Positions 235-56,353 of a stretch of 64,000 bases of DNA are shown here, one piece after another. Under the pieces are notes generated by a model. It did not search any database. It had not been told where the DNA came from and saw only the letters and a list, made by a program, of their open reading frames with translations. Source of the stretch: a virus; IMG/VR virus record IMGVR_UViG_3300027899_000001, positions 62,001 to 126,000 of that record, one strand, 5' to 3'. The translations under genes and the position numbers were made by a program. Each line of letters begins with the position of its first letter. Position 1 is the stretch's first letter.

Positions 235-246
235 AGAATGAATTAC

Positions 247-262
247 TTTTATTTATATATTC
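247..262 (-). promoter_or_regulatory. T4-late-like promoter
   Basis: Minus strand GAATATATAAATAAAA, containing TATAAATA exactly, just upstream of the tagged gene that starts at 234. Confidence 0.7.
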
Positions 263-283
263 TTTATGTCTAAATTGAATTGA

Positions 284-310
284 CAAAAAACCCCCACTGA
301 GGCTGGGGGT
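284..310 (-). terminator. Factor-independent terminator after tmRNA
   Basis: On the minus strand ACCCCCA and TGGGGGT form a 7-bp stem with a 7-base loop, followed by a run of six T. It closes the tmRNA transcription unit. Confidence 0.85.
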
Positions 311-311
311 A

Positions 312-545
312 AATCTCCTACCAACGAGTGCTTCTTAAGCAGCCATTTGTAATGCGTAACTATTTTCGCCGTTTACTTGCGTGTTGAGACATTCATTATT
401 TCCCTTAGTATACAATCTAAACCAAATCATCCCCATTAAAAGCAATATCTCTTTTATAAAGATTTGTGGAGATGGTGGGATCCGACCCCACGTCTTGCAT
501 ACCTACTCTATAACTAGCTCTTGCGAGCATTCTCAATATCTTAAA
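312..545 (-). ncRNA. ssrA: tmRNA (ssrA), circularly permuted gene order
   Basis: Read on the minus strand, the 3' half comes first. It has a GNRA hairpin (517-528), a P2 strand GTATGCAA (502-495), a T-arm with 5-bp stem GTGGG/CCCAC and 7-base loop (491-475), and the acceptor strand CATCTCC (474-468). About 33 bases of spacer follow. Then comes the 5' half: acceptor strand GGGGATG (434-428) pairing with CATCTCC through one G-U, a D-loop-like GGTTTAGA, the P2 partner TTGTATAC (415-408), and a tag reading frame (370-335) encoding GENSYALQMAA and a TAA stop. The CCA end is not encoded. tmRNA rescues stalled ribosomes and tags the nascent protein for proteolysis. The order implies a two-piece mature RNA after removal of the spacer, as in alphaproteobacteria. 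The outer ends are approximate. An early-type promoter (549-556) and a strong terminator flank it. Confidence 0.85.
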
Positions 546-548
546 GAA

Positions 549-576
549 CAAATATAATACAAAATCTTACAATTTG
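549..576 (-). promoter_or_regulatory. Early-type promoter of tmRNA
   Basis: Minus strand TATATTTG at 556-549, preceded by TTGTAAG at the same distance at which CTGTC boxes occur in the related promoters near 38610, 57305 and 58127. Resembles the Bacteroidetes -7 box TAnnTTTG. Confidence 0.5.
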
Positions 577-19907: not shown

Positions 19908-19923
19908 TTTATTTTATATATTC
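19908..19923 (-). promoter_or_regulatory. Late-like promoter of tagged operon
   Basis: Minus strand GAATATATAAAATAAA, ten bases before the TTG start. Confidence 0.6.
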
Positions 19924-19929
19924 AGCAAA

Positions 19930-45640: not shown

Positions 45641-46261
45641 TTAGCGTTTATTTTCTTTCCATCTCATAATATCATAATTTTTATGTTTTTCCCAACATGA
45701 TTTACAAATAGTATAAATCCATCCTTCAGTTTGTCCAACATTAATAGTAGAGCCACAGGTTTCACAAATTTTATAAGATAGACTTTCAGCAAAAGATGTT
45801 ATTCCATAGATAGTATTATCTCCACCATTATAATAAAATCGCAGTCCTCCAAATTTTTCTTTTATTTGAGTAACTTCTATACTTATAGGTGGACGTCCTC
45901 CTCTAGGAGCATTTTTATAAATCCATTCGCCAATGGCTCTAAGAGTTTTTTGTTTTGCAGATGTTCTTATTCTAAGTTTATAACTCAGATTTTTCATCCA
46001 TTTATATTTGAACTCATTAGCTCTATTTCTGTTTTCATTTTCAATATGATTTTTTATTTCGCTCATAAGTTCATCAAGAAGCATAAACCAACCTCGATTA
46101 CATTCAATTCCAAATTGTATCGGGTCAACAATTTCTTTCTGATTAATAAGTTCTGCTACTTCTTCTTTTATAGATTTTTCACTTATATAAATTTTCTTTT
46201 TTACATGAGAGAAAAATTCAGGATATTTATCTAAAAGTTTTCGTTCTAATTCAGCTTCCAT
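45641..46261 (-). CDS. Hypothetical protein with C-terminal zinc ribbon
   Basis: About 206 residues from the ATG at 46261 (MEAELERKLLDKYPEFF); an upstream start would run into the endonuclease gene. Central IEVTQIKEKFGGLRFYYNGG and a C-terminal CETCGSTINVGQTEGWIYTI ending CKSC form a zinc ribbon. The combination occurs in uncharacterised phage proteins. Five bases separate it from the endonuclease stop. Confidence 0.6.
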   Translation of the reverse strand: MEAELERKLLDKYPEFFSHVKKKIYISEKSIKEEVAELINQKEIVDPIQFGIECNRGWFMLLDELMSEIKNHIENENRNRANEFKYKWMKNLSYKLRIRTSAKQKTLRAIGEWIYKNAPRGGRPPISIEVTQIKEKFGGLRFYYNGGDNTIYGITSFAESLSYKICETCGSTINVGQTEGWIYTICKSCWEKHKNYDIMRWKENKR

Positions 46262-46265
46262 ATTT

Positions 46266-47228
46266 TTAGCTATTAAGTATAAATTTTGTATAATCTTTAT
46301 CGACAATCATTATATAATTAAAACCTTTAGAAATAGTAGCTTTTTGTTTTGCTTCTATAATTTTTTTATCTTTTTTTATAAGATATGAGTTTTTAATTTC
46401 AATTATAAGATTTAATGAAGGAATATAAAAATCAGGGAAATAAATTTTATTTTTATTATTATATCGATATTTAATCGAGGGCCCGTTTTTTAAATCTGGA
46501 TACATATTTAAAAATTTTTCAAGAAAATCTAATTCGTAAGAACCTCTATAATATATATCAATGTTTAAATATTTATGAGAATAATAAGCGCTTTTTTGTT
46601 GTTTTTCAAATATATTTTTAACTTGCCCAGGATATTCAACACCATATTTTTCTACATATATTTTTTTGATATCTTCTTTTATTTTTTTAGATTGAAATAC
46701 ATTATCTACACCCCATTTTTCTTTACAAGTTTTTTTTACTTTTTCTCTATTTGAATAATATTCATTTCCATATCTTTCTTTTTTTGTTTGTTTTGATTTT
46801 TCTTTTGATTTTTCTAATTGAAATGAATTTTCTACATCATAACGTTCTTTAAGTGTTTTTTTGCAGGTTTCCTGATTCCATCCATTGGGCACACATTTTA
46901 AAGAACAATATTTATTCGGCGCGCCTCTCGTAAAATTTACAGATTTTCCACAAGTTTTACACGTTGGCGTTCCGTATTTTTTAATATAATTTTTCTTTCT
47001 CCATTCTGGTCCTTTATGGCCTACTGCAAAATCATGAAAAATATTATCTCGATATTCGGGCATTTCATCACAATATCCGCATTTGCATTTTGGCGATATT
47101 CCATTTAATACATATTCTATATGATAATTCTTAGAAGATATATGATGGTGTTGTTTTAAATGATTATTAAATTTTCTTAAAGCTAAAAACTCTTCATTAC
47201 AAATTTGACATTTAATGTTTGATTTCAT
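46266..47228 (-). CDS. Zinc-finger PD-(D/E)XK homing endonuclease, family copy 4
   Basis: 320 residues. Finger CQICNEEFLALRKFNNHLKQ, a second Cys cluster CKTCGKSVNF...YCSLKC, repeats RYDVENSFQ, KWGVDNVFQ, KYGVEYPGQ, and core YRGSYELDFLEKFL, KNGPSIKYRYNNK, YFPDFYIPSLNLIIEIKNSY. Its own late-like promoter is at 47230-47245. Sits between the AAA+ C-part gene and a zinc-ribbon gene. Confidence 0.85.
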   Translation of the reverse strand: MKSNIKCQICNEEFLALRKFNNHLKQHHHISSKNYHIEYVLNGISPKCKCGYCDEMPEYRDNIFHDFAVGHKGPEWRKKNYIKKYGTPTCKTCGKSVNFTRGAPNKYCSLKCVPNGWNQETCKKTLKERYDVENSFQLEKSKEKSKQTKKERYGNEYYSNREKVKKTCKEKWGVDNVFQSKKIKEDIKKIYVEKYGVEYPGQVKNIFEKQQKSAYYSHKYLNIDIYYRGSYELDFLEKFLNMYPDLKNGPSIKYRYNNKNKIYFPDFYIPSLNLIIEIKNSYLIKKDKKIIEAKQKATISKGFNYIMIVDKDYTKFILNS

Positions 47229-47229
47229 T

Positions 47230-47245
47230 TTTATTTTATATATTC
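47230..47245 (-). promoter_or_regulatory. Late-like promoter
   Basis: Minus strand GAATATATAAAATAAA before the copy 4 endonuclease. Confidence 0.6.
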
Positions 47246-47304
47246 ATCTTAATTCAAAAATGTAATGAATGTGGTGTTAATTTTTTGTTAAGATTTTAAT
47301 TTTC

Positions 47305-48141
47305 TTATTGTGTTAAAAAACCTACTTTTTTAGGTACGGGTTTTGCGTGATTATCTGTTCCATAATAATAAATATCTGCAAGAGTCATAGGCTCTGTAAC
47401 ATTAATTTCTTTATGACCAAGTTTAACTAAAAGAGCTTTTGATTTTTCGATTGAAAGTTTTTCAAATTTATAATTCATTAAAAGTCTTCCTTTTCTTGTA
47501 AGAGCTTCATCTATATTCTTAGTTCCTGTGTTAAAGGTTGCTACTATAGAAATATTCAAACAATCTGAAAGTAAACCATCAGTAAGATTAAGAACATTAC
47601 TTACAGCAGAACTTCTTCCCCCATTATTTCTTTTTTCAAGAGCGGGTTCAGCATCTTCAATTATAAGAACTGAATCATTATTTCTCATAAGAAAAGGAAT
47701 AAAGGCTGGATCTGTAATAGAATCAACCATATCAGGAGATATGAAAATGATGTTCTTCTTAAGTTTAGATGTAAGATACCTAATATAAGTAGTATTATGA
47801 CTAATAATATTATTTGTATAATATAATTTATTAGAATCAACATCTAATTCTAAATCATACATATTTTCACGCTCATCTAATTTTATAACTTGTTGAACAT
47901 TTTCATATCCCGTTTTTGTTAAAATTATATCTCCTATTTTTAAGTTTTTTACATATATTTCAACATTATTATTTAATAATACAATGTGATTATCTGCACA
48001 TCTTAATTGATATTTATCTGTTTTTAAAAGATACACATCATATTTAATAGTTTTATGAATAGCATCAATATTAACCCATCCATCCGGAGTTAATACTTCA
48101 TAATCTTCTAATTTTTTAGATTTTATAAATTTTTTATTCAT
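47305..48141 (-). CDS. Split intein C-part fused to C-terminal half of AAA+ ATPase
   Basis: 278 residues. Residues 1-116 are an intein C-part. It contains the block B-like QLRCADNHIVLL, then KIGDIILTKTG, and ends in block G ..YYTNNIISHN, with the last Asn encoded at 47796-47794. Residue 117 (Thr, +1 extein) starts TTYIRYLTSKLKKNIIF. Together with GEPGTGK at the end of the other half this restores a Walker A motif. The C-extein has Walker B VLIIEDAEPALE, sensor-like VATFNTGTKN and Arg-finger-like LTRKGRLLM. Starts 8 bases inside the end of the endonuclease gene, so translation is coupled. Confidence 0.88.
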   Translation of the reverse strand: MNKKFIKSKKLEDYEVLTPDGWVNIDAIHKTIKYDVYLLKTDKYQLRCADNHIVLLNNNVEIYVKNLKIGDIILTKTGYENVQQVIKLDERENMYDLELDVDSNKLYYTNNIISHNTTYIRYLTSKLKKNIIFISPDMVDSITDPAFIPFLMRNNDSVLIIEDAEPALEKRNNGGRSSAVSNVLNLTDGLLSDCLNISIVATFNTGTKNIDEALTRKGRLLMNYKFEKLSIEKSKALLVKLGHKEINVTEPMTLADIYYYGTDNHAKPVPKKVGFLTQ

Positions 48142-49039
48142 ATTTTATAAAGTTTATACATTTTAATAAAGTATTTTGATAATTAAATTTATTTAAATCA
48201 TCTTCCCAAATAATTAAAATTTTATATCCAAGAGATTGCAGCATTTCAATTTTAAATTTATCTTTTTGCCATATTTCTTTTGCAGTTAATATTTTAGTTT
48301 TACTTATTGCAATTATAGAATTTTCAAAATAATATTTAGGATTTGCGTGATAAAAATTGCCATTCAATTCTATTATTTTATTTTCATATAAAAGATCAAC
48401 ATAAAATCCTTTATTTTTATTATAACGTATCCATTTTTCTTCTATTCCAAAATAAAGTTTTTTATCTATATTATTTTGTAAATCATTAAAAAATTTTTCG
48501 GATAATTTACTATATCTTCTAAATAAACTGTTTCTTCTTCCTTTACCTCTTTCATGTGATAATATTTTTACTCGTTCCTCTCCAAATTTTTGTGTTAATT
48601 GATCTTTTGTTTTTCCACGAGTTTTATTAATTTCAATTCTTTCACTATCAGATTTTGAATAATATGTATTTTTTCTTTTCTGTAAAATATTATTTTTTTT
48701 CTCTTCAGAAAAATTATCTATAGAAAGTTTAGCCCTAACCCCATCTATCATTTTTTTTATTTCATCTGGATCAGTTATATTCTTTTTTATCCAATATTCT
48801 TTTTCCCATGGCATAAGCATATTTTCATAAGAATCTTTTGATCTTTTTTTTGCATTTTCAGATTGTATTTGTTTAATTTTTTCAATGGCTTCATTTTTAG
48901 AAAACCCGCGTTTAATCCAAAATTCTATGCAAAATCTAGAAGTTTCTTTTCTTTTTTGCAATGCAATATTTTCAGCTTCATTTTCATTGTATCCTTTTTT
49001 TATCCAATATTCTTTATCGTAAATAGTTATTTTTTTCAT
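48134..49039 (-). CDS. Free-standing Vsr/EDxHD-type endonuclease inside fractured AAA+ gene
   Basis: 301 residues. The N-terminus has repeats built on EYWIKKGYNENEAENIALQK and EFWIKRGFSKNEAIEKIKQI (DNA-binding). The C-terminal nuclease: VDLLYENKIIELNGNFYHAN, then PKYYF, EIWQKDKFKIEMLQSLGYKI, LIIWEDDL, as in the Vsr-like homing endonuclease family known from fractured genes. Lies exactly between the two intein-bearing halves of the AAA+ gene. Confidence 0.85.
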   Translation of the reverse strand: MKKITIYDKEYWIKKGYNENEAENIALQKRKETSRFCIEFWIKRGFSKNEAIEKIKQIQSENAKKRSKDSYENMLMPWEKEYWIKKNITDPDEIKKMIDGVRAKLSIDNFSEEKKNNILQKRKNTYYSKSDSERIEINKTRGKTKDQLTQKFGEERVKILSHERGKGRRNSLFRRYSKLSEKFFNDLQNNIDKKLYFGIEEKWIRYNKNKGFYVDLLYENKIIELNGNFYHANPKYYFENSIIAISKTKILTAKEIWQKDKFKIEMLQSLGYKILIIWEDDLNKFNYQNTLLKCINFIKYE

Positions 49040-49046
49040 AAATATT

Positions 49047-49062
49047 TTTATTTTATATATTC
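49047..49062 (-). promoter_or_regulatory. Late-like promoter
   Basis: Minus strand GAATATATAAAATAAA, before the endonuclease inside the fractured AAA+ locus. Confidence 0.6.
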
Positions 49063-49091
49063 ATGATTTTCATTAGCTGGAATACCAAAAA

Positions 49092-50012
49092 CTACATCAA
49101 ATCTGTAATATTTATTTCTTCTATTTTTCCTGTTTTTTTATTACGTATAGTTATTTTAGTATTATAACAAACACACTTACCTGTTCCTGGTTCACCCGGA
49201 AGAATAACGAGATTAGTTTTATCTTTACTATTGAGACCTGTAATTATTTCAGACGATATTTCTTCAAATCCATCATTATAATTTTCTTTTAAGTCTACTT
49301 TTATTTTCTTTACATCGAATCCTATTTTTTCAAATCCATGTTGATTTTTATATACAATATAGATTTTATTCTTTGTGATTTTAGGTTTTTTATGATTTTT
49401 TAATAAACTTAACAGTGTATGAAAAGTAGAATTTTCATTCTTTTCTGCACTTATATCATAATATATTGAGCCTTCATTAATTCCATCAAAAAATAACAAT
49501 AAATCTTTATCAAAGGCAATTAAAAGAGAACTTATTTTAGCTTCATTACTATCTTGAAATGATATCTTAAAAAAGCTATTATCAGGAACATTATAATACT
49601 TAAAAAGATTATTTATAAAATTACTTACATTATAATCTTCGAATCTAAAAATAGCTGGATAAAACCCATTAAGAAGTTGATAACGATATCCAAAATGATT
49701 CGTTTCAGAACAATATGAAAGATATGCTTCATCAGCATCAGCCATTTTTACAAAATCTCCAATAGGATAGAAATTAAGTTTAGGCTTATCTGAAAATTTA
49801 ATAGCTTTTATTTTATTAAAATCTACTGCAATATCTACAGAATCGCTAGTATTTTCTTTAGGTTCAATTTCTTCTCCGAATTCTTCAAATACTGAGTCAT
49901 CTATGTAATTTATATTCATATCTATAGGTTTATAATCTTTTAGTTTTAATTCATCAAAATATTCTTTATTCCAATGTCCATGATCATAGACTTTTATTTT
50001 CCTTCTAGCCAT
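49092..50012 (-). CDS. N-terminal half of AAA+ ATPase fused to a very short intein N-part
   Basis: 306 residues. The N-extein (279 residues) ends LVILPGEPGTGK, a Walker A motif interrupted before its Thr. The intein N-part is only 27 residues, beginning CVCYNTKITIRNKKTGKIEE (Cys1 codon 49175-49173) and ending at the stop. Protein trans-splicing with the partner at 47305-48141 would rebuild a 441-residue ATPase. The short N-part is the atypical split position known from AceL-TerL-type inteins. Substrate of the ATPase unknown. Start overlaps the end of the topoisomerase C-part gene by 19 bases. Confidence 0.88.
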   Translation of the reverse strand: MARRKIKVYDHGHWNKEYFDELKLKDYKPIDMNINYIDDSVFEEFGEEIEPKENTSDSVDIAVDFNKIKAIKFSDKPKLNFYPIGDFVKMADADEAYLSYCSETNHFGYRYQLLNGFYPAIFRFEDYNVSNFINNLFKYYNVPDNSFFKISFQDSNEAKISSLLIAFDKDLLLFFDGINEGSIYYDISAEKNENSTFHTLLSLLKNHKKPKITKNKIYIVYKNQHGFEKIGFDVKKIKVDLKENYNDGFEEISSEIITGLNSKDKTNLVILPGEPGTGKCVCYNTKITIRNKKTGKIEEINITDLM

Positions 50013-50500
50013 TTTTTTCTTTTTGCCGGTGAATCCCCAAATGCTATTTCAAGAAATCTATCAGCGCTTCTATCATTAATAACTGAGAATAATATCTTAT
50101 TGTTCATTACATTTTCCCAATCTTCTAATGAAAGAGAACCAAGTCCTTTAAGATAATTTACATTTGTTACTTTTGTTTTTTCTATAAATTCTGAATATTC
50201 TTCTAAAGTATAAAAATACTTTCTTTCTTTTCCAACTGTGCAAACTACTAATGGCGTTATTATTCTATAAAGTTTCTTCTTTTCAATTATATGAGGAAAC
50301 CATTTATGAAAGAAACTAATAATAAGAGAACTAATATGCTGTCCATCGCAATTATGTGCTAATATTTTTGTATTTTCATTTAAATAAACATAAAAGGTGT
50401 GACTATCTTTTACTGTTATATCATACATTATTAAATTTTTTCTATATTTTTTAATATTCGCGGGTTGCACTAATTTATATTTTGTTAAATCTATATTCAT
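49994..50500 (-). CDS. gp39: Split intein C-part fused to C-terminal part of topoisomerase gp39
   Basis: 168 residues. Residues 1-50 are the intein C-part (MYDITVKDSHTFYVY, ending KILAHN; last Asn codon 50353-50351). The C-extein begins CDGQHISSLIISFFHKWFPH, which completes the TOPRIM signature D-E-D-C-D-G-x-H when joined to the partner. It continues with NYLKGLGSLSLEDWENVMNN, a topoisomerase II signature. C-extein 118 residues. Confidence 0.9.
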   Translation of the reverse strand: MNIDLTKYKLVQPANIKKYRKNLIMYDITVKDSHTFYVYLNENTKILAHNCDGQHISSLIISFFHKWFPHIIEKKKLYRIITPLVVCTVGKERKYFYTLEEYSEFIEKTKVTNVNYLKGLGSLSLEDWENVMNNKILFSVINDRSADRFLEIAFGDSPAKRKKWLEGK

Positions 50501-51489
50501 ATTTCTATTATTATATTTCTGTGTTTAATTTCATCTAATATTTGTAATAAATATTCTTCTGTAAGTTTTGTTGATTCCCATATAATTAATATTGCAATAT
50601 TTTTTTTGAATTCATGATTAAATAAATAATTAATTCTATTTTTATCTTTTTCCCAAATTTCATATGCAAATCTTTTCATTATTTTATGAAAATAATCTTT
50701 TGGATAATATTTAGAATTACAGTGCCAATAATCGCCATAAAATTCTATTATGATATTTAAATCCGGTATATAAAAATCTATTGCTCCATTTTTTCCAATT
50801 TCATTTTCATATTTATATTCTTCTACATAATAAATATTACATTTATTAAGAATATCACCAACTATTTTAGATTTAATAGATTTATTAGGCCCAAACGCGG
50901 AATGTTTCTTTTTTCTAAAAATATCATATTTTTCTAGGCCTTCAATTTCTCCATATTTTTCAATATACCATGATAATGTATTAGCTTTAGATATTTTAGC
51001 ATTTCGTTTTTCATATTTTTTAATACCTTCTTCTTTACCATATTTTTTAACATAATTTTCTAAATTAGCTCTCCATGTAAGCTCCCTAAATCCTTTACTT
51101 TTATCATGTTTAACATCAGTAATATTTTTTTTATGTAATAAACTTAAGTATAGAGAATTTGCGCCAATATGTTCAAATCTTTTTTTATCATACGGTTCAT
51201 TAAATATTTTTTGACTAATATTTTCTTTACATTGTAATGTATGACAAAAATATCCATCGTTATAACTTACTTTATACAATTTATTTTTATGATCAATTTC
51301 AAACGTTGGAATAGCATATTTATTGCAAAATCCGCATATTTCTAATTTAAAATTTGGAGTTAAATTTTTATAATATTTTTTAACATACTCATTAAGTAAT
51401 AAGTCGTGCACGCGTTTTACATGGGATCCTATATAAGTTCCATTATTAGTAACCTCTTTTCCGCAAATTAAACATCTAATCTTTTCCAT
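50497..51489 (-). CDS. Free-standing Vsr/EDxHD-type endonuclease inside fractured gp39
   Basis: 330 residues. N-terminal zinc finger (CLICGKEVTNNGTYIGSHVK with RVH), middle repeats (YVKKYGKEEGIKKYEKRNAK, WYIEKYGEIEGLEKYD), C-terminal nuclease core IDFYIPDLNIIIEFYGDYWH followed by CNSKYY, EIWEKDKNRINYLF and AILIIWES. Related to the endonuclease in the AAA+ locus. Four-base overlap with the gp39 C-part gene. Confidence 0.85.
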   Translation of the reverse strand: MEKIRCLICGKEVTNNGTYIGSHVKRVHDLLLNEYVKKYYKNLTPNFKLEICGFCNKYAIPTFEIDHKNKLYKVSYNDGYFCHTLQCKENISQKIFNEPYDKKRFEHIGANSLYLSLLHKKNITDVKHDKSKGFRELTWRANLENYVKKYGKEEGIKKYEKRNAKISKANTLSWYIEKYGEIEGLEKYDIFRKKKHSAFGPNKSIKSKIVGDILNKCNIYYVEEYKYENEIGKNGAIDFYIPDLNIIIEFYGDYWHCNSKYYPKDYFHKIMKRFAYEIWEKDKNRINYLFNHEFKKNIAILIIWESTKLTEEYLLQILDEIKHRNIIIEI

Positions 51490-51501
51490 ATGCTTTCCAT
51501 C

Positions 51502-51517
51502 TTTATTTTATATATTC
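51502..51517 (-). promoter_or_regulatory. Late-like promoter
   Basis: Minus strand GAATATATAAAATAAA, ahead of the endonuclease inside the fractured gp39 locus. Confidence 0.6.
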
Positions 51518-51533
51518 ATGACGGTTTTCATGT

Positions 51534-53267
51534 TTATTCTTTTTTAAGAAGTAAAAAATCAGTTTTTTTCAAATCTTTAGCAAAAATTTCTTGTAATTTT
51601 TCATTTCTACATACTATTAAAATATGATTTTCTGAACAAATTAATTTTTCATTATTAATTTCTATTTCAATATATTTTTCTTTTTTTGTTTTTATTATTT
51701 TTTCGATAGTTTTATATTCATTGGTGTGTGTTAAAATTTCATCATTATAGGTTAAATCTTTAATTTTTTTAAATCCATCTTTTGTAATAATTAAATGGTC
51801 TTCATCAAGACAATCTTCATCTGTAGCAATTATTATTTTGTCATAAACTGGTAATTTATCTTTGCCGGGTTCTATTTCAAGAATGCTCATTATATCTAAC
51901 CATTCAGCATTTCCTGTTAAATCTGATAATTTTCTTGCATTTTTAACCTTTCCTTTAAGAGCATATACTGCGTCAGTTTCAGAATCTCTTGCTTGTTTTA
52001 CTGAACCTGCTGCTGAAAGTCCTTCAGTAATATATATGCATCCCTTGTATTTTGAAGCAGGACTAAATTTATCAGATATCTTTCTTTTCGATTGCTTCTG
52101 AGCCTTTCTAATCTTAACTAAATTTTCATTATGGAGTCTATCTTCTATAGATTTTTCGATGCTTCTTGCTATATCAGATTTACTCAAGAATCTTATTAAC
52201 TTACTATGAAAAGATTCTTTCATCAATTCTTCTATTTCTCCACGACCTGTTGCAAATTTTGTTTTATTTTGGTCTGCAAATCTCATTAATTGCGACGGAA
52301 GATTAAGAGATATAAGAGTTTCATAGAAATGGTGAGCTAAATTATACTTAAAATATTCATTACCCCAATCATTAACTACTTTCTGATGTATTCCTGTACA
52401 GTTAGATCCATTAACAAATGATAAAGAACAAGAATTTTCATATGCTTCCCAAAGATATATTGTCCCCATATTGTTAGTTACAGTTATATGATCTTTAGGA
52501 ATAAAATCTGTCGTTATATCTATATCAAATTGTTTTCCTTCTTTTATAAAATATCCTTTGAAATCTAATTTATTAATAATAGGATCGTTCTTTATTAAGA
52601 AGTATTTGAATGAAAGATAAGTTGTTATTAAATCTATATCCCATTTAAGATCTAGAAATATTTTCTTTGATGGAATAAAGGTTATTTTAGTTCCAAGTTT
52701 ATCTGAAGATTCTTTTTTTCTTATTTCTTCATTTACTACTACGAAATCATCCCATGTAAATTTTACATAATGAGTTTTATTAACAGTAGTTACTGCGAAT
52801 TTCTCAGATAAAATATTAGTTACGGCAGCACCTAAACCAAAAGTTCCAAGTATATTAGTTGATGTATCAGTAAAATTAGAACCTGCGTGAAGTTCTTCAA
52901 GAGCAGTTCTTACTACATTTTTCTTTGTTTTACTATGTTTTTTAGCTGCATCATGAAATCCTAAACCTTCATCTATCACAATTATTTCATTATTATCAAG
53001 ATTAACTTTAACTGTAACATTTTTCATTTTACCCTTACATCGTTTAGCTTCATCTAAAGAATTTTCTAAAATTTCATAAAATAATTGATAAAATCCAGGT
53101 GAATATTTTTTTTCTAATGAAATTAATTTATTATTAATAACAAGCGGATATTTACTATCTTCTATTTCAGATATTTGCCCAACATAAAGAGTAGGCCTTA
53201 ATCGTATAGCGGTAAAATTATCTAACGCTATTATTTCTTTTGAATTTCCTGTATTATTTTTTAACAT
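51534..53267 (-). CDS. gp39: Topoisomerase II large subunit (gp39), N-part with split intein N-part
   Basis: 577 residues. GHKL ATPase with EILENSLDEAKRC, DEGLGFHDA and LGTFGLGAAV; QTKxxK-like region DQNKTKFATGRG; TOPRIM begins ITEGLSAAGSVKQARD. The N-extein (485 residues) ends IIATDED. The intein N-part (92 residues, Cys1 codon 51812-51810) starts CLDEDHLIITKDGFKKIKDL and includes block B LICSENHILIV. With the 118-residue C-extein the product would be 603 residues, close to uninterrupted T4-type gp39. Together with gp52 it forms the phage topoisomerase. Confidence 0.93.
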   Translation of the reverse strand: MLKNNTGNSKEIIALDNFTAIRLRPTLYVGQISEIEDSKYPLVINNKLISLEKKYSPGFYQLFYEILENSLDEAKRCKGKMKNVTVKVNLDNNEIIVIDEGLGFHDAAKKHSKTKKNVVRTALEELHAGSNFTDTSTNILGTFGLGAAVTNILSEKFAVTTVNKTHYVKFTWDDFVVVNEEIRKKESSDKLGTKITFIPSKKIFLDLKWDIDLITTYLSFKYFLIKNDPIINKLDFKGYFIKEGKQFDIDITTDFIPKDHITVTNNMGTIYLWEAYENSCSLSFVNGSNCTGIHQKVVNDWGNEYFKYNLAHHFYETLISLNLPSQLMRFADQNKTKFATGRGEIEELMKESFHSKLIRFLSKSDIARSIEKSIEDRLHNENLVKIRKAQKQSKRKISDKFSPASKYKGCIYITEGLSAAGSVKQARDSETDAVYALKGKVKNARKLSDLTGNAEWLDIMSILEIEPGKDKLPVYDKIIIATDEDCLDEDHLIITKDGFKKIKDLTYNDEILTHTNEYKTIEKIIKTKKEKYIEIEINNEKLICSENHILIVCRNEKLQEIFAKDLKKTDFLLLKKE

Positions 53268-54198
53268 AATTTTCTATAAATTCTTTATAGTTTTTATTTA
53301 AGATAAGAATATAATTATATCCTAATTTTTTTGTTGCTTTTTCTTTTTCAAAAATTTCATTTTCATTCATTTTTAAGGTATAAGATCCTTTTATTTCTAT
53401 TACTAAATTTTCAGATGGTAGATAAAAATCAGAATGATATACTCTATTTTTTCCATCAAGGTTATATTTTATAGACGGCCCATTTTGCATATCATTAAAT
53501 AAAGTATAAAAATTTTCTAAAAAGTCAAATTCATATGACGCTTGATACGTTAAATTACTATCTTTATATTGATGTAATAGCATCCTAGTTTTAAATGCTT
53601 TATCATATATTCCTTTATCTTGTAAAGGATTTTCGACTCCATATTTTTTTAAATAATGTTGTTTTAAATTATTTTGAATAATTTTGCTAGAATATGGATT
53701 TTTTGTTCCATAATTTTTTTTACATGTTTTTTCTGCTTTTAATTTAACATCTTTATTAGCTAATGTACATGCAGTTCCATATTTTTTTATATTAGTATTT
53801 TCAAGTTTATCTCTAACTATTTTTGATTTATTTGGATTATCTACTCCATAATTTTCTTTCCACGTTTCTTTCATTTTATTTTTACAATCTTCTCTTTGAA
53901 AATTGTTTTCTACTCCATAAGTGTGTAATAATGTTTCTTTTCGAGTTTCATTTGCAATTTTTATACTATGATTATTACAACAACCTTTAATATATCCATA
54001 AGCTAAACTTTTAAACTTAGTTTGTTTATTACATATTTTACATAATTCTTCGTTATCTTCTTTTAACCATTTATCAAAATATATTTTAGTGTTATCGTGC
54101 TTTCGTTGAATATGTTTACTTAAAGACATTAAATTTTTACATATTTTTTGGCATTCTTCACAAATATAAAAATCATTTTCTTGTTTAAATTTTTTCAT
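53254..54198 (-). CDS. Zinc-finger PD-(D/E)XK homing endonuclease, family copy 5
   Basis: 314 residues. Finger CEECQKICKNLMSLSKHIQR, Cys pair CKICN, five repeats (TYGVENNFQ, NYGVDNPNK, KYGTACTLA, NYGTKNPYS, KYGVENPLQ), and core YQASYEFDFLENFY, QNGPSIKYNLDGK, YHSDFYLPSENLVIEIKGSY. Ends 14 bases inside the gp39 N-part gene, so the large topoisomerase locus carries two endonucleases of different families. Confidence 0.85.
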   Translation of the reverse strand: MKKFKQENDFYICEECQKICKNLMSLSKHIQRKHDNTKIYFDKWLKEDNEELCKICNKQTKFKSLAYGYIKGCCNNHSIKIANETRKETLLHTYGVENNFQREDCKNKMKETWKENYGVDNPNKSKIVRDKLENTNIKKYGTACTLANKDVKLKAEKTCKKNYGTKNPYSSKIIQNNLKQHYLKKYGVENPLQDKGIYDKAFKTRMLLHQYKDSNLTYQASYEFDFLENFYTLFNDMQNGPSIKYNLDGKNRVYHSDFYLPSENLVIEIKGSYTLKMNENEIFEKEKATKKLGYNYILILNKNYKEFIENYVKK

Positions 54199-54206
54199 AA
54201 ATATAT

Positions 54207-54223
54207 TTTTAATTTATATATCT
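54207..54223 (-). promoter_or_regulatory. Late-like promoter variant
   Basis: Minus strand AGATATATAAATTAAAA, before copy 5. Confidence 0.45.
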
Positions 54224-54306
54224 ATGAGTGCCAAAAGTTTTTGTTATATTTAGAGTTCTTCTGTTCTATCGCCATATGTTTTTTGTATATTATATAAGGT
54301 TTATAA

Positions 54307-54534
54307 TTAAAGTTTTATGAAACGATTCATGCCTGCTATTATTGATAACCAATCATAGTATTCATCTCGTTCTTCTTCTGTATCAAACCAATAGCATATA
54401 TTTCCATGATTAAATGTAAAATCTATTCCATACTGAAATACTTGAGTACCTTTAACTCCTTCATATAATGTTTTGTTAAAATAATCTACTTGATTTAAAT
54501 TAATGCTAGCACAATTTTCTTTAGTTATCCACAT
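54307..54534 (-). CDS. Small hypothetical protein (75 aa)
   Basis: MWITKENCASINLNQVDYFN start, then strands with FNHGNICYWFDTEEERDEYY and a final helix. Compact alpha/beta, no recognised family. Four bases from the next upstream gene in a run of small genes (54307-55249). Confidence 0.55.
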   Translation of the reverse strand: MWITKENCASINLNQVDYFNKTLYEGVKGTQVFQYGIDFTFNHGNICYWFDTEEERDEYYDWLSIIAGMNRFIKL

Positions 54535-55312: not shown

Positions 55313-56353
55313 TCATATATTTAGAAGTTTATTAAATTGTGCATACTGTTTATCTAAAATTAAAATATAGTTATATCCTTCTTTTTTTACTGCGTATTCT
55401 TTCTCTTTAATTTTTTCATCTTTTTTAAAAAAATAGTTGCTTTTTATTTCTATTATTAAGTTTAAATCGGAAATAAAAAAATCGGGAAAATAAACGTGAT
55501 TATTATTTTCATATACATAATTTATTTTTGGCCCATTTAATATATTAACTTTTTCATAATAATTTTCTAAAAAATCTAATTCATATGTACCTTGATAATT
55601 TAAACTAGTATCTTTATATTGGTTAATTTGTAATCCTGATTTGAACCATTTTAAGCGTATTTCATCACTTTGAAATACATTTTCTACTCCGTATCTTTCT
55701 AAACATGTTTGTTTTATTTTATTTCTTACATCTTTTGATTTAAAGGGTGTATCTGTTCCATAATGTTTTAAACAAGTTTGTCTTGATTTTTCTTTAACAC
55801 TTTTAGACTGTATATGATGTTTATTACCATAACGTATTAACGATGTATTTTCTCCTTTTTCTCTAACTTCTTTATTTTTCCAAGGATGATTTTTGCCATA
55901 TCTTTTTTTATTTGTTTCTTCTGTTTTATTTCTTATTTCTTTTGATTTAAATGGGGTATCAACTCCAAATTTTTTTATACAAGTTTGTTTTGATTTTTCT
56001 CTATTACTATAATTTTCATCGCCGTATTTTTTGTTTTTTGTTTCTTTGCATTTATTTTTTATTAAATCATTCTGAAATACGTTTTCTACTCCATAAATTT
56101 TTAAATTCGTTTCCTTTTTTGTTTTTTCTTTTAATATTTTTAAACATCTTTTGTTTTTACATGTTAATTGATAACCTTTTTGAATAGATATAAATACTGT
56201 TTCTTTTCCACAAATTTTACATATACCATCACTATTATTTTTTATATACTTATCATAATAATGTTTTCCATTATGGCATTTTCTAATATGATGACTAAAA
56301 GATCTCCATGAATATAAAATTTTATTACATTCTTTACATTTAAAGTTTTCCAT
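55313..56353 (-). CDS. Zinc-finger PD-(D/E)XK homing endonuclease, family copy 6
   Basis: 346 residues, the longest of the family, with seven repeats (IYGVENVFQ, KYGDENYSN, KFGVDTPFK, RYGKNHPWK, RYGNKHHIQ, HYGTDTPFK, RYGVENVFQ). Finger CKECNKILYSWRSFSHHIRK, Cys cluster CKICG...CKNKRC, core YQGTYELDFLENYY, NGPKINYVYENN, YFPDFFISDLNLIIEIKSNY. Follows a duplicated stub of the DUF932 gene's 3' end. Confidence 0.85.
   Translation of the reverse strand: MENFKCKECNKILYSWRSFSHHIRKCHNGKHYYDKYIKNNSDGICKICGKETVFISIQKGYQLTCKNKRCLKILKEKTKKETNLKIYGVENVFQNDLIKNKCKETKNKKYGDENYSNREKSKQTCIKKFGVDTPFKSKEIRNKTEETNKKRYGKNHPWKNKEVREKGENTSLIRYGNKHHIQSKSVKEKSRQTCLKHYGTDTPFKSKDVRNKIKQTCLERYGVENVFQSDEIRLKWFKSGLQINQYKDTSLNYQGTYELDFLENYYEKVNILNGPKINYVYENNNHVYFPDFFISDLNLIIEIKSNYFFKKDEKIKEKEYAVKKEGYNYILILDKQYAQFNKLLNI

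What the first reader, a model, noticed from the sequence alone, without database searches (positions are those of the whole stretch)
47305..50012. Fractured AAA+ ATPase gene with an atypically split intein
The Walker A motif GEPGTGK/T is divided: the N-half gene ends with a 27-residue intein N-part starting with Cys, and the C-half gene begins with a 116-residue intein C-part ending in His-Asn, followed by Thr. A free-standing Vsr-like endonuclease gene lies between. The arrangement matches the fractured genes described from marine metagenomes, and the very short N-part matches the AceL-TerL type. The ATPase would be non-functional without trans-splicing.
Basis: partly seen in the sequence, partly recalled or inferred. 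Interest (0 to 1): 0.87.

Follow-up and report, generated by a model that had tools for sequence, protein, structure and literature searches.

The report
Phage ATPase gene split by intein
In a giant bacterial virus, the gene for a BCS1-like AAA+ ATPase is cut in two inside its ATP-binding loop by a naturally split intein with a separate homing-endonuclease gene sitting in the break; the two protein halves are predicted to find each other and splice into one enzyme. It is a new example of a known kind of element, and its relatives show how such unusually split inteins can arise.

Summary
On the minus strand, 49092-50012 encodes an ATPase N-half ending in Walker A GEPGTGK plus a 27-aa intein N-part (Cys1). 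47305-48141 encodes a 116-aa intein C-part ending in HN, then TTYIRYL and the rest of the ATPase. A 301-aa Vsr-like endonuclease gene (48134-49039) lies between. Uninterrupted orthologues in related phages read straight across the junction (GK|TT) with nothing missing. No other copy of the ATPase is in the 405-kb virus record. The intein resembles VidaL and the AceL/GOS-TerL consensus (Cat). It belongs to a large phage family otherwise sitting mostly in terminase (TerL) P-loops. The genome holds exactly three such Vsr-like endonucleases, one in each break. Relatives show every state at this split point: contiguous, split with Vsr-like or GIY-YIG endonuclease, and split with the endonuclease lost. 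Verdict: a real new member of a known kind, extending atypical split inteins to a new host gene. Trans-splicing itself is inferred.

The parts
49176..50012 (-). ATPase N-extein, 279 aa, ends in Walker A GEPGTGK
   Evidence: aligns to uninterrupted orthologues L011/L012/L014
49095..49175 (-). Intein N-part, 27 aa, starts Cys1 (CVCYNTKITIRNKKTGKIEEINITDLM); stop codon 49092-49094
   Evidence: same 27-aa part with same stop in L015, L016, L019
48134..49039 (-). Free-standing Vsr-like homing endonuclease gene, 301 aa, with invariant D215, E224, G227, H231, N233
   Evidence: fold match 3r3p I-Bth0305I prob 0.99, E 0.06; weak sequence match to Vsr 1odg/1vsr E about 0.15
49047..49063 (-). Promoter-like element TGAATATATAAAATAAA directly upstream of the endonuclease gene (putative phage late promoter)
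   Evidence: 39 copies with at most 1 mismatch in the 405-kb genome against 0 for the reversed pattern; also before the endonuclease genes of L019 (exact) and L015 (core)
48134..48141 (-). ATGAATAA: 8-base overlap of C-half start codon and endonuclease stop codon (possible translational coupling)
   Evidence: identical in L013, L015, L019; ATGAATAA also kept in L016, where the endonuclease has decayed
47794..48141 (-). Intein C-part, 116 aa, ends SHN; family signature HKTIxY and CADxH
   Evidence: VidaL 6vgv E 1.5e-9
47308..47793 (-). ATPase C-extein, 162 aa, starts Thr+1 (TTYIRYL), carries Walker B-like LIIEDAE; stop 47305-47307
   Evidence: profile hits BCS1 6sh3 E 3.6e-5
51813..53267 (-). 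Adjacent second fractured gene: topoisomerase II large subunit N-extein, 485 aa, ends ATDED (TOPRIM)
51534..51812 (-). Topoisomerase intein N-part, 92 aa, Cys1 (canonical split site), with stop
50497..51489 (-). Second Vsr-like endonuclease gene, 330 aa
50351..50500 (-). Topoisomerase intein C-part, 50 aa, ends AHN
   Evidence: TIGR01443 intein_Cterm 27.8 bits, over the cut-off
49994..50350 (-). Topoisomerase C-extein, 118 aa, starts Cys+1 (CDGQHI), with stop

Best explanation
This is a fractured gene. A mobile split intein sits between the Walker A lysine and threonine of a BCS1-like AAA+ ATPase of a jumbo phage, and a free-standing Vsr-like homing endonuclease gene occupies the split point of the intein. 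Shown by sequence: two separate ORFs, complementary intein parts (27 + 116 aa) with the catalytic residues (Cys1, block-B His, block-F Asp, terminal His-Asn, Thr+1), and precise intein-free alleles in relatives. Inferred: the halves are translated separately, the C-half probably coupled to the end of the endonuclease ORF. The 27-aa N-part docks onto the largely complete 116-aa C-part. N-S shift, transesterification to Thr+1, Asn cyclisation and O-N shift release the intein and give the intact 441-aa ATPase with a restored GEPGTGKTT loop. The endonuclease, probably made from its own late-promoter-like element, cuts intein-free P-loop alleles in co-infecting phages so that the unit (N-part, endonuclease, C-part) is copied in. 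The atypical split probably arose when an endonuclease gene entered a contiguous mini-intein after its first helix.
For: Both halves and junction residues. Gapless uninterrupted orthologues; 77 of 80 relatives empty. Uninterrupted L012 hits Pfam AAA over cut-off and its model matches YjoB/Bcs1 (E 3e-11 to 5e-11). Same fracture in L015, L016, L019. Intein C-part matches VidaL and CatC. Catalytic and signature residues A49, D50, H52, M94, D96, S114, H115, N116 are invariant in 34 of 34 distinct C-parts, +1 always T or S. Intein parts evolve under constraint: dN/dS 0.20-0.27 for the N-part and 0.28-0.62 for the C-part. The split persists where the endonuclease is gone (L016; L056 versus L066), implying that splicing is maintained independently of homing. 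Endonuclease fold is I-Bth0305I-like. Exactly three such endonucleases in the genome, all in fractured genes. Campylobacter phage CP220 (contiguous) versus F379 (same intein fractured by an endonuclease ORF) shows the fracturing step in isolates. No Rfam intron.
Against: No splicing or cleavage assay exists. The ATPase subfamily lacks the block-F histidine seen in most relatives (DSNK instead of DDHR), and block B has Ala instead of Thr three before the His; VidaL has the same CAxNH pattern (alignment) and is a fast intein (PMC13014065), so neither is disqualifying. The fold match of the endonuclease is confident in probability (0.99) but has E 0.06. Mobility is inferred: the four occupied ATPases fall on one side of a branch in 74% of bootstrap trees of the neighbouring topoisomerase, so one gain followed by vertical descent fits as well.
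Confidence: 0.92

Rival explanations
1. Dead element: the gene is broken, the intein no longer splices, and the ATPase is a pseudogene or dispensable.
For: No functional data. The intein C-part is diverging faster than the C-extein (67% against 85% identity, window against L015).
Against: All ORFs are open. Both exteins stay under constraint in the fractured lineages (C-extein dN/dS 0.12-0.23). All catalytic residues are kept in four divergent phages and 34 distinct C-parts. The split intein is kept where the endonuclease has decayed.
Confidence: 0.04
2. A self-splicing intron (RNA level) with an intron-encoded endonuclease interrupts the gene; the predicted intein parts are chance. Campylobacter phage F379 annotators used this reading ('intron-associated endonuclease').
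For: An endonuclease gene inside an interrupted gene is also the usual look of a group I intron.
Against: No Rfam match at E<=1 in 46000-54500. The sequences flanking the endonuclease are conserved as protein, with intein catalytic residues, and match solved inteins.
Confidence: 0.01
3. The halves act as two unspliced subunits that assemble into a working ATPase without ligation.
For: The N-half carries the N-terminal domain and Walker A lysine, the C-half carries Walker B; two-chain ATPases can assemble.
Against: The break is inside the P-loop between the lysine and threonine that both bind nucleotide, each end is blocked by an intein part, and the splicing residues are conserved.
Confidence: 0.02
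4. Assembly or sequencing artefact (chimera or frameshift).
For: The window is from an environmental virus record; L013 is identical and may be the same assembly.
Against: The same arrangement at the same codon occurs at 57-71% C-part identity in three other contigs.
Confidence: 0.01

Closest known systems
Fractured genes with split inteins and Vsr-like homing endonucleases (Dassa et al. 2009, NAR 37:2560; paper not held here, taken from citing papers and from memory)
   Same: Two gene halves, complementary split-intein parts at the break, a free-standing Vsr-like (I-Bth0305I-type) endonuclease gene between them, phage-type host genes. The IMPDH gene of the same genome looks like the IMPDH case of that study (from memory).
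   Different: From memory, those cases use the canonical split site (N-part about 90-120 aa), as the neighbouring topoisomerase and IMPDH do; here the N-part is 27 aa. A BCS1-like ATPase host is not one I know of.
AceL-TerL / GOS-TerL atypical split inteins and their consensus Cat (PMC11766414, PMC13014065)
   Same: Very short N-part (25-37 aa; here 27), about 104-116-aa C-part, split after the first helix (S2), alignable C-part (CatC E 8e-6), phage P-loop ATPase hosts.
   Different: Host is an AAA+ ATPase, not terminase; +1 is Thr, not Cys as in GOS-TerL; an endonuclease gene is still present in the split.
VidaL intein (PDB 6vgv, 6vgw)
   Same: Closest solved structure by sequence (E 1.5e-9), alignable over almost the whole intein, same CAxNH block B.
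   Different: VidaL is split earlier (S1, 16-aa N-part; PMC13014065).
Phage TerL P-loop intein family (Ackermannviridae such as Klebsiella phage Magnus and Vibrio phages Kuja and VP-1; Campylobacter phages CP220/F379; Salicola SCTP-2; Delftia PhiW-14)
   Same: Same C-part family (36-46% identity over 97-100% of 116 aa in the rows listed, more than 300 phage records) and, in most of those looked at, the same GK|T insertion point.
   Different: Contiguous in most of the isolates examined here (split in F379 and PhiW-14), in the terminase gene. The window case is split and in another gene family.
Split PolB intein of Pseudomonas phage MIJ3/PA5oct (PMC6892783)
   Same: Jumbo phage; split intein with an endonuclease gene between the halves. 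MIJ3 also carries a relative of this ATPase, with the match running across the P-loop in one piece.
   Different: Different host gene (PolB), canonical split, endonuclease described as HNH.

Membership tests
Fractured gene (Dassa type) | Host gene divided into two separate adjacent ORFs that together match an uninterrupted homologue | tested here: met
Fractured gene (Dassa type) | Complementary split-intein parts at the two broken ends | tested here: met
Fractured gene (Dassa type) | Free-standing endonuclease gene in the break, of the Vsr-like family | tested here: met
   Gene present; best structural match 3r3p I-Bth0305I, prob 0.99, E 0.06, no other convincing match; Vsr 1odg/1vsr E about 0.15 by sequence; D, E, H, N residues invariant in 14 homologues. 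Strength moderate.
Fractured gene (Dassa type) | Halves joined by protein trans-splicing | not testable with these tools
   needs co-expression
Atypical (S2) split intein, AceL/GOS-TerL type | N-part of about 15-37 aa, split after the first helix | tested here: met
   27 aa ending in the ITDLM segment; alignment with VidaL and CatC; S1/S2 definition from PMC13014065. Position judged by sequence, no structure of this intein made.
Atypical (S2) split intein, AceL/GOS-TerL type | Intein body homologous to the AceL/GOS/Cat or VidaL inteins | tested here: met
   VidaL 1.5e-9, CatC 8e-6
Atypical (S2) split intein, AceL/GOS-TerL type | Splicing residues: nucleophile at 1, block-B His, terminal His-Asn, nucleophile at +1 | tested here: met
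   Cys1, H52, H115-N116, Thr+1; C-part residues invariant in 34 relatives with T or S at +1
Phage P-loop (GK|T) TerL intein family | C-part homology and insertion between Walker A Lys and Thr/Ser | tested here: met
   host gene differs
Group I/II intron | Recognisable intron RNA in the insert | tested here: not met
   no Rfam match at E<=1 in 46000-54500
BCS1-like AAA+ ATPase (host protein) | AAA domain with BCS1/YjoB-like fold | tested here: met
   PF00004 E 4.5e-10 for uninterrupted L012; BCS1 6sh3 E 3.6e-5 by profile; top structural matches YjoB and Bcs1, E about 1e-11 to 1e-9

The most novel reading that the evidence does not exclude
Atypical (S2) split inteins are made by homing-endonuclease genes invading contiguous P-loop mini-inteins after the first helix, repeatedly and with interchangeable nuclease domains (Vsr-like and GIY-YIG on a similar DNA-binding front part). 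Because the endonuclease targets the near-universal Walker A codons (GGnAAA|ACn), the unit has moved between unrelated P-loop genes: terminase, clamp loader and a BCS1-like ATPase. The present locus is one product of that process.
Probability: 0.45. Interest if true: 0.66.

Novelty: new member of a known kind. Interest (0 to 1): 0.52.

Why it matters
It adds a readily testable split intein with a short N-part (27 aa, synthesisable) and Thr+1 chemistry, plus a family of tens of relatives. The relatives form a natural series (contiguous; split with endonuclease; split without) that makes the origin of atypically split inteins directly testable. The same genome carries three split inteins, two of them in neighbouring genes, so it is also a natural test of cross-talk between split inteins in one cell.

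Tried and rejected
GTDB bacterial/archaeal genomes gave no confirmed relative of the intein C-part and plasmids none, so a cellular origin was not pursued. A scan for the topoisomerase intein N-part found only the identical contig. Megablast of window 40-60 kb against isolates gave nothing, so the phage has no close named relative there. NCBIfam recognises neither ATPase half and no intein in them, and Pfam's Intein_splicing reaches only 21.7 bits against a cut-off of 35.8: the case rests on comparative evidence and PDB matches, not on a curated family hit. Synonymous divergence is lower in the insert (dS 0.40-0.79) than in the flanking topoisomerase (1.11-1.41), which could mean later horizontal transfer, but the insert is more AT-rich (third-position GC 7-11% against 12-13% in the N-extein, C-extein and topoisomerase), which lowers saturation, so I did not use it. 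A horizontal-gain test by tree was not decisive. Dassa 2009 and Bachmann & Mootz 2015 are not in the paper library.

Full report
OBSERVATION. The window is bases 62001-126000 of a 405,016-base virus record. All genes concerned are on the minus strand. The N-half (49092-50012) ends LVILPGEPGTGK-CVCYNTKITIRNKKTGKIEEINITDLM-stop. The C-half (47305-48141) begins with 116 residues ending YTNNIISHN, followed by TTYIRYLTSKLKKNIIFISPDMV. The 301-aa ORF 48134-49039 lies between. Joining the exteins gives 441 residues. The only ATPase matches in the whole record are these two halves.

INTEIN-FREE ALLELES. A scan of viral contigs found uninterrupted orthologues in the same gene order next to topoisomerase: L011, L012 and L014. 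Their reading frames pass through GK|TTYIRYL without a residue gained or lost. A wider scan gave 80 relatives, 77 with an intact Walker A at the site and 3 occupied. The window insert, L015, L016 and L019 are the occupied forms known here. In L015 the endonuclease is intact (57% identical). In L016 only its last 75 or so residues remain, yet both intein parts are kept. In all three the topoisomerase match runs on uninterrupted, so the two adjacent fractures in the window are independent events.

WHAT THE INTEIN IS. The C-part profile matches VidaL (E 1.5e-9), CatC, the AceL/GOS consensus (8e-6), and gp41-1-type inteins. The joined intein aligns with VidaL over nearly its whole length. A second scan with the C-part gave 54 loci; more than 300 isolated phages carry relatives. 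Hosts checked with Pfam are T4-type terminase (Terminase_6N), clamp-loader large subunit (Gp44_lid, L023) and, for uninterrupted L012, AAA. In almost all of the contigs the insertion is between the P-loop lysine and the following Thr or Ser, the classic P-loop intein site described for mycobacteriophage terminases (PMC5050341). In Campylobacter phages it is slightly further upstream. Thirty-four distinct C-parts share HKTIxY, AD-H, M-D and SHN, and +1 is T (28) or S (6). The N-parts are 27 to 57 aa. PMC13014065 places the AceL and GOS split after the first helix (S2) and the VidaL split earlier (S1); the window's split falls at S2 by alignment.

WHAT THE ENDONUCLEASE IS. Its homologues in the other breaks share a repeated EYW..KG.S...A front part and a C-terminal nuclease with invariant D, E, G, H, N. 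The AlphaFold model (pLDDT about 90 in the nuclease domain) has I-Bth0305I (3r3p) as its only convincing match (prob 0.99, E 0.06, TM 0.63 to the target); sequence alone gives E about 0.15 to Vsr. Two homologous breaks instead carry GIY-YIG nucleases (MUG113/T5orf172, L053 and L062), and so, by its KIGI-type motif, does F379 (read, not tested by profile). In the 405-kb genome exactly three Vsr-like genes occur and each lies inside a fractured gene: ATPase, topoisomerase and IMPDH (positions checked).

HOW THE SPLIT AROSE. Of 30 breaks examined, 27 are split and 3 contiguous; 21 of the split ones hold a long ORF and 6 do not. Klebsiella phage Magnus and Campylobacter phage CP220 carry the contiguous mini-intein. 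Campylobacter phage F379 carries the CP220 intein cut into two ORFs with an endonuclease gene in place of a short linker. L056 and L066 are near-identical split inteins without and with the endonuclease. The S2 split therefore looks like an endonuclease insertion point, and the split state outlives the endonuclease. The direction of change is inferred, not shown by the unrooted trees.

EXPRESSION. A 17-base element TGAATATATAAAATAAA lies 7-12 bases before the endonuclease start codons in both window fractures, and (one mismatch) before the IMPDH endonuclease. It occurs 39 times in the genome with at most one mismatch, 0 times in the reversed control, and near-matches precede the portal and other long ORFs of the structural region, so I read it as a phage late promoter (inference). 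The C-half start codon overlaps the endonuclease stop in ATGAATAA, and this is kept in all four phages.

MECHANISM. Shown: split ORFs, complementary parts, catalytic residues, constraint, empty alleles. Inferred: separate translation, association, trans-splicing to the 441-aa ATPase, homing into empty P-loops. The host protein is BCS1-like: uninterrupted L012 folds closest to YjoB and Bcs1. Its role in the phage is unknown; BCS1 relatives are AAA chaperones or translocases (general knowledge).

NOVELTY. It works like, and is a member of, the fractured genes with split inteins; its split is of the AceL/GOS-TerL position and its body of the phage P-loop intein family. New here as far as the held literature shows: the BCS1-like host gene, the combination of an atypical split with a resident Vsr-like gene, and three fractured genes in one genome. 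I could not read the founding papers, so statements about them rest on reviews and memory.

Noticed in passing
window 49994-53267 (-): Second fractured gene directly upstream: topoisomerase II large subunit split in the TOPRIM motif (ATDED|CDGQHI) by a canonical split intein (92 + 50 aa) with its own Vsr-like endonuclease (50497-51489). Intein-free relatives L011 and L077 have Ala, and L014 Pro, at the +1 position where the window has Cys.
   Followed up: partly
G000:C1:132320-134898 (L017:6320-8898), outside the window: Third fractured gene: IMPDH-like enzyme with split intein (CFIPGQN... / ...NGVIVHN|SGCTT) and a NUMOD3-bearing Vsr-like endonuclease between; resembles the published IMPDH-1 split intein (from memory).
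   Followed up: partly
G000:C1:138522-141986 (L017:12522-15986), outside the window: Adenosylcobalamin-type ribonucleotide reductase gene with a contiguous intein; the only Pfam Intein_splicing match over the cut-off in the genome.
   Followed up: no
window 46266-47228, 53254-54198, 55313-56353 (-): Free-standing DUF7487 zinc-finger/TnsA-like endonuclease genes flank the two fractured genes; 16 matches in the 405-kb genome, some of them two pieces of one gene.
   Followed up: partly
window 47230-47246, 49047-49063, 51502-51518, 19908-19924 (-) and genome-wide: Element TGAATATATAAAATAAA, 39 copies with at most one mismatch in the genome, 0 in the reversed control; sits just before endonuclease and structural genes; probable late promoter.
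   Followed up: partly
window 49065-49095 (-) and L015, L016, L019: Bases just after the N-part stop codon (ATGTAGTTTTxGGxATTyC) are conserved among the four fractured ATPase genes; meaning unknown.
   Followed up: no
L155 (Campylobacter phage F379) versus L159 (CP220): Same terminase intein contiguous in CP220 and fractured by an endonuclease ORF in F379, where it is annotated as 'intron-associated endonuclease'.
   Followed up: yes
L156 (Delftia phage PhiW-14) 2809-2989: The terminase intein N-part and N-half are not annotated in the record; only the C-half is called terminase large subunit.
   Followed up: no
L041, L044, L063 (viral contigs): Contiguous terminase inteins of about 420 aa carry an extra stretch of well over 100 aa at the split position that does not look like a known endonuclease.
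   Followed up: no
window 244-556 (-): Phage-encoded tmRNA predicted by ARAGORN, tag GENSYALQMAA.
   Followed up: no
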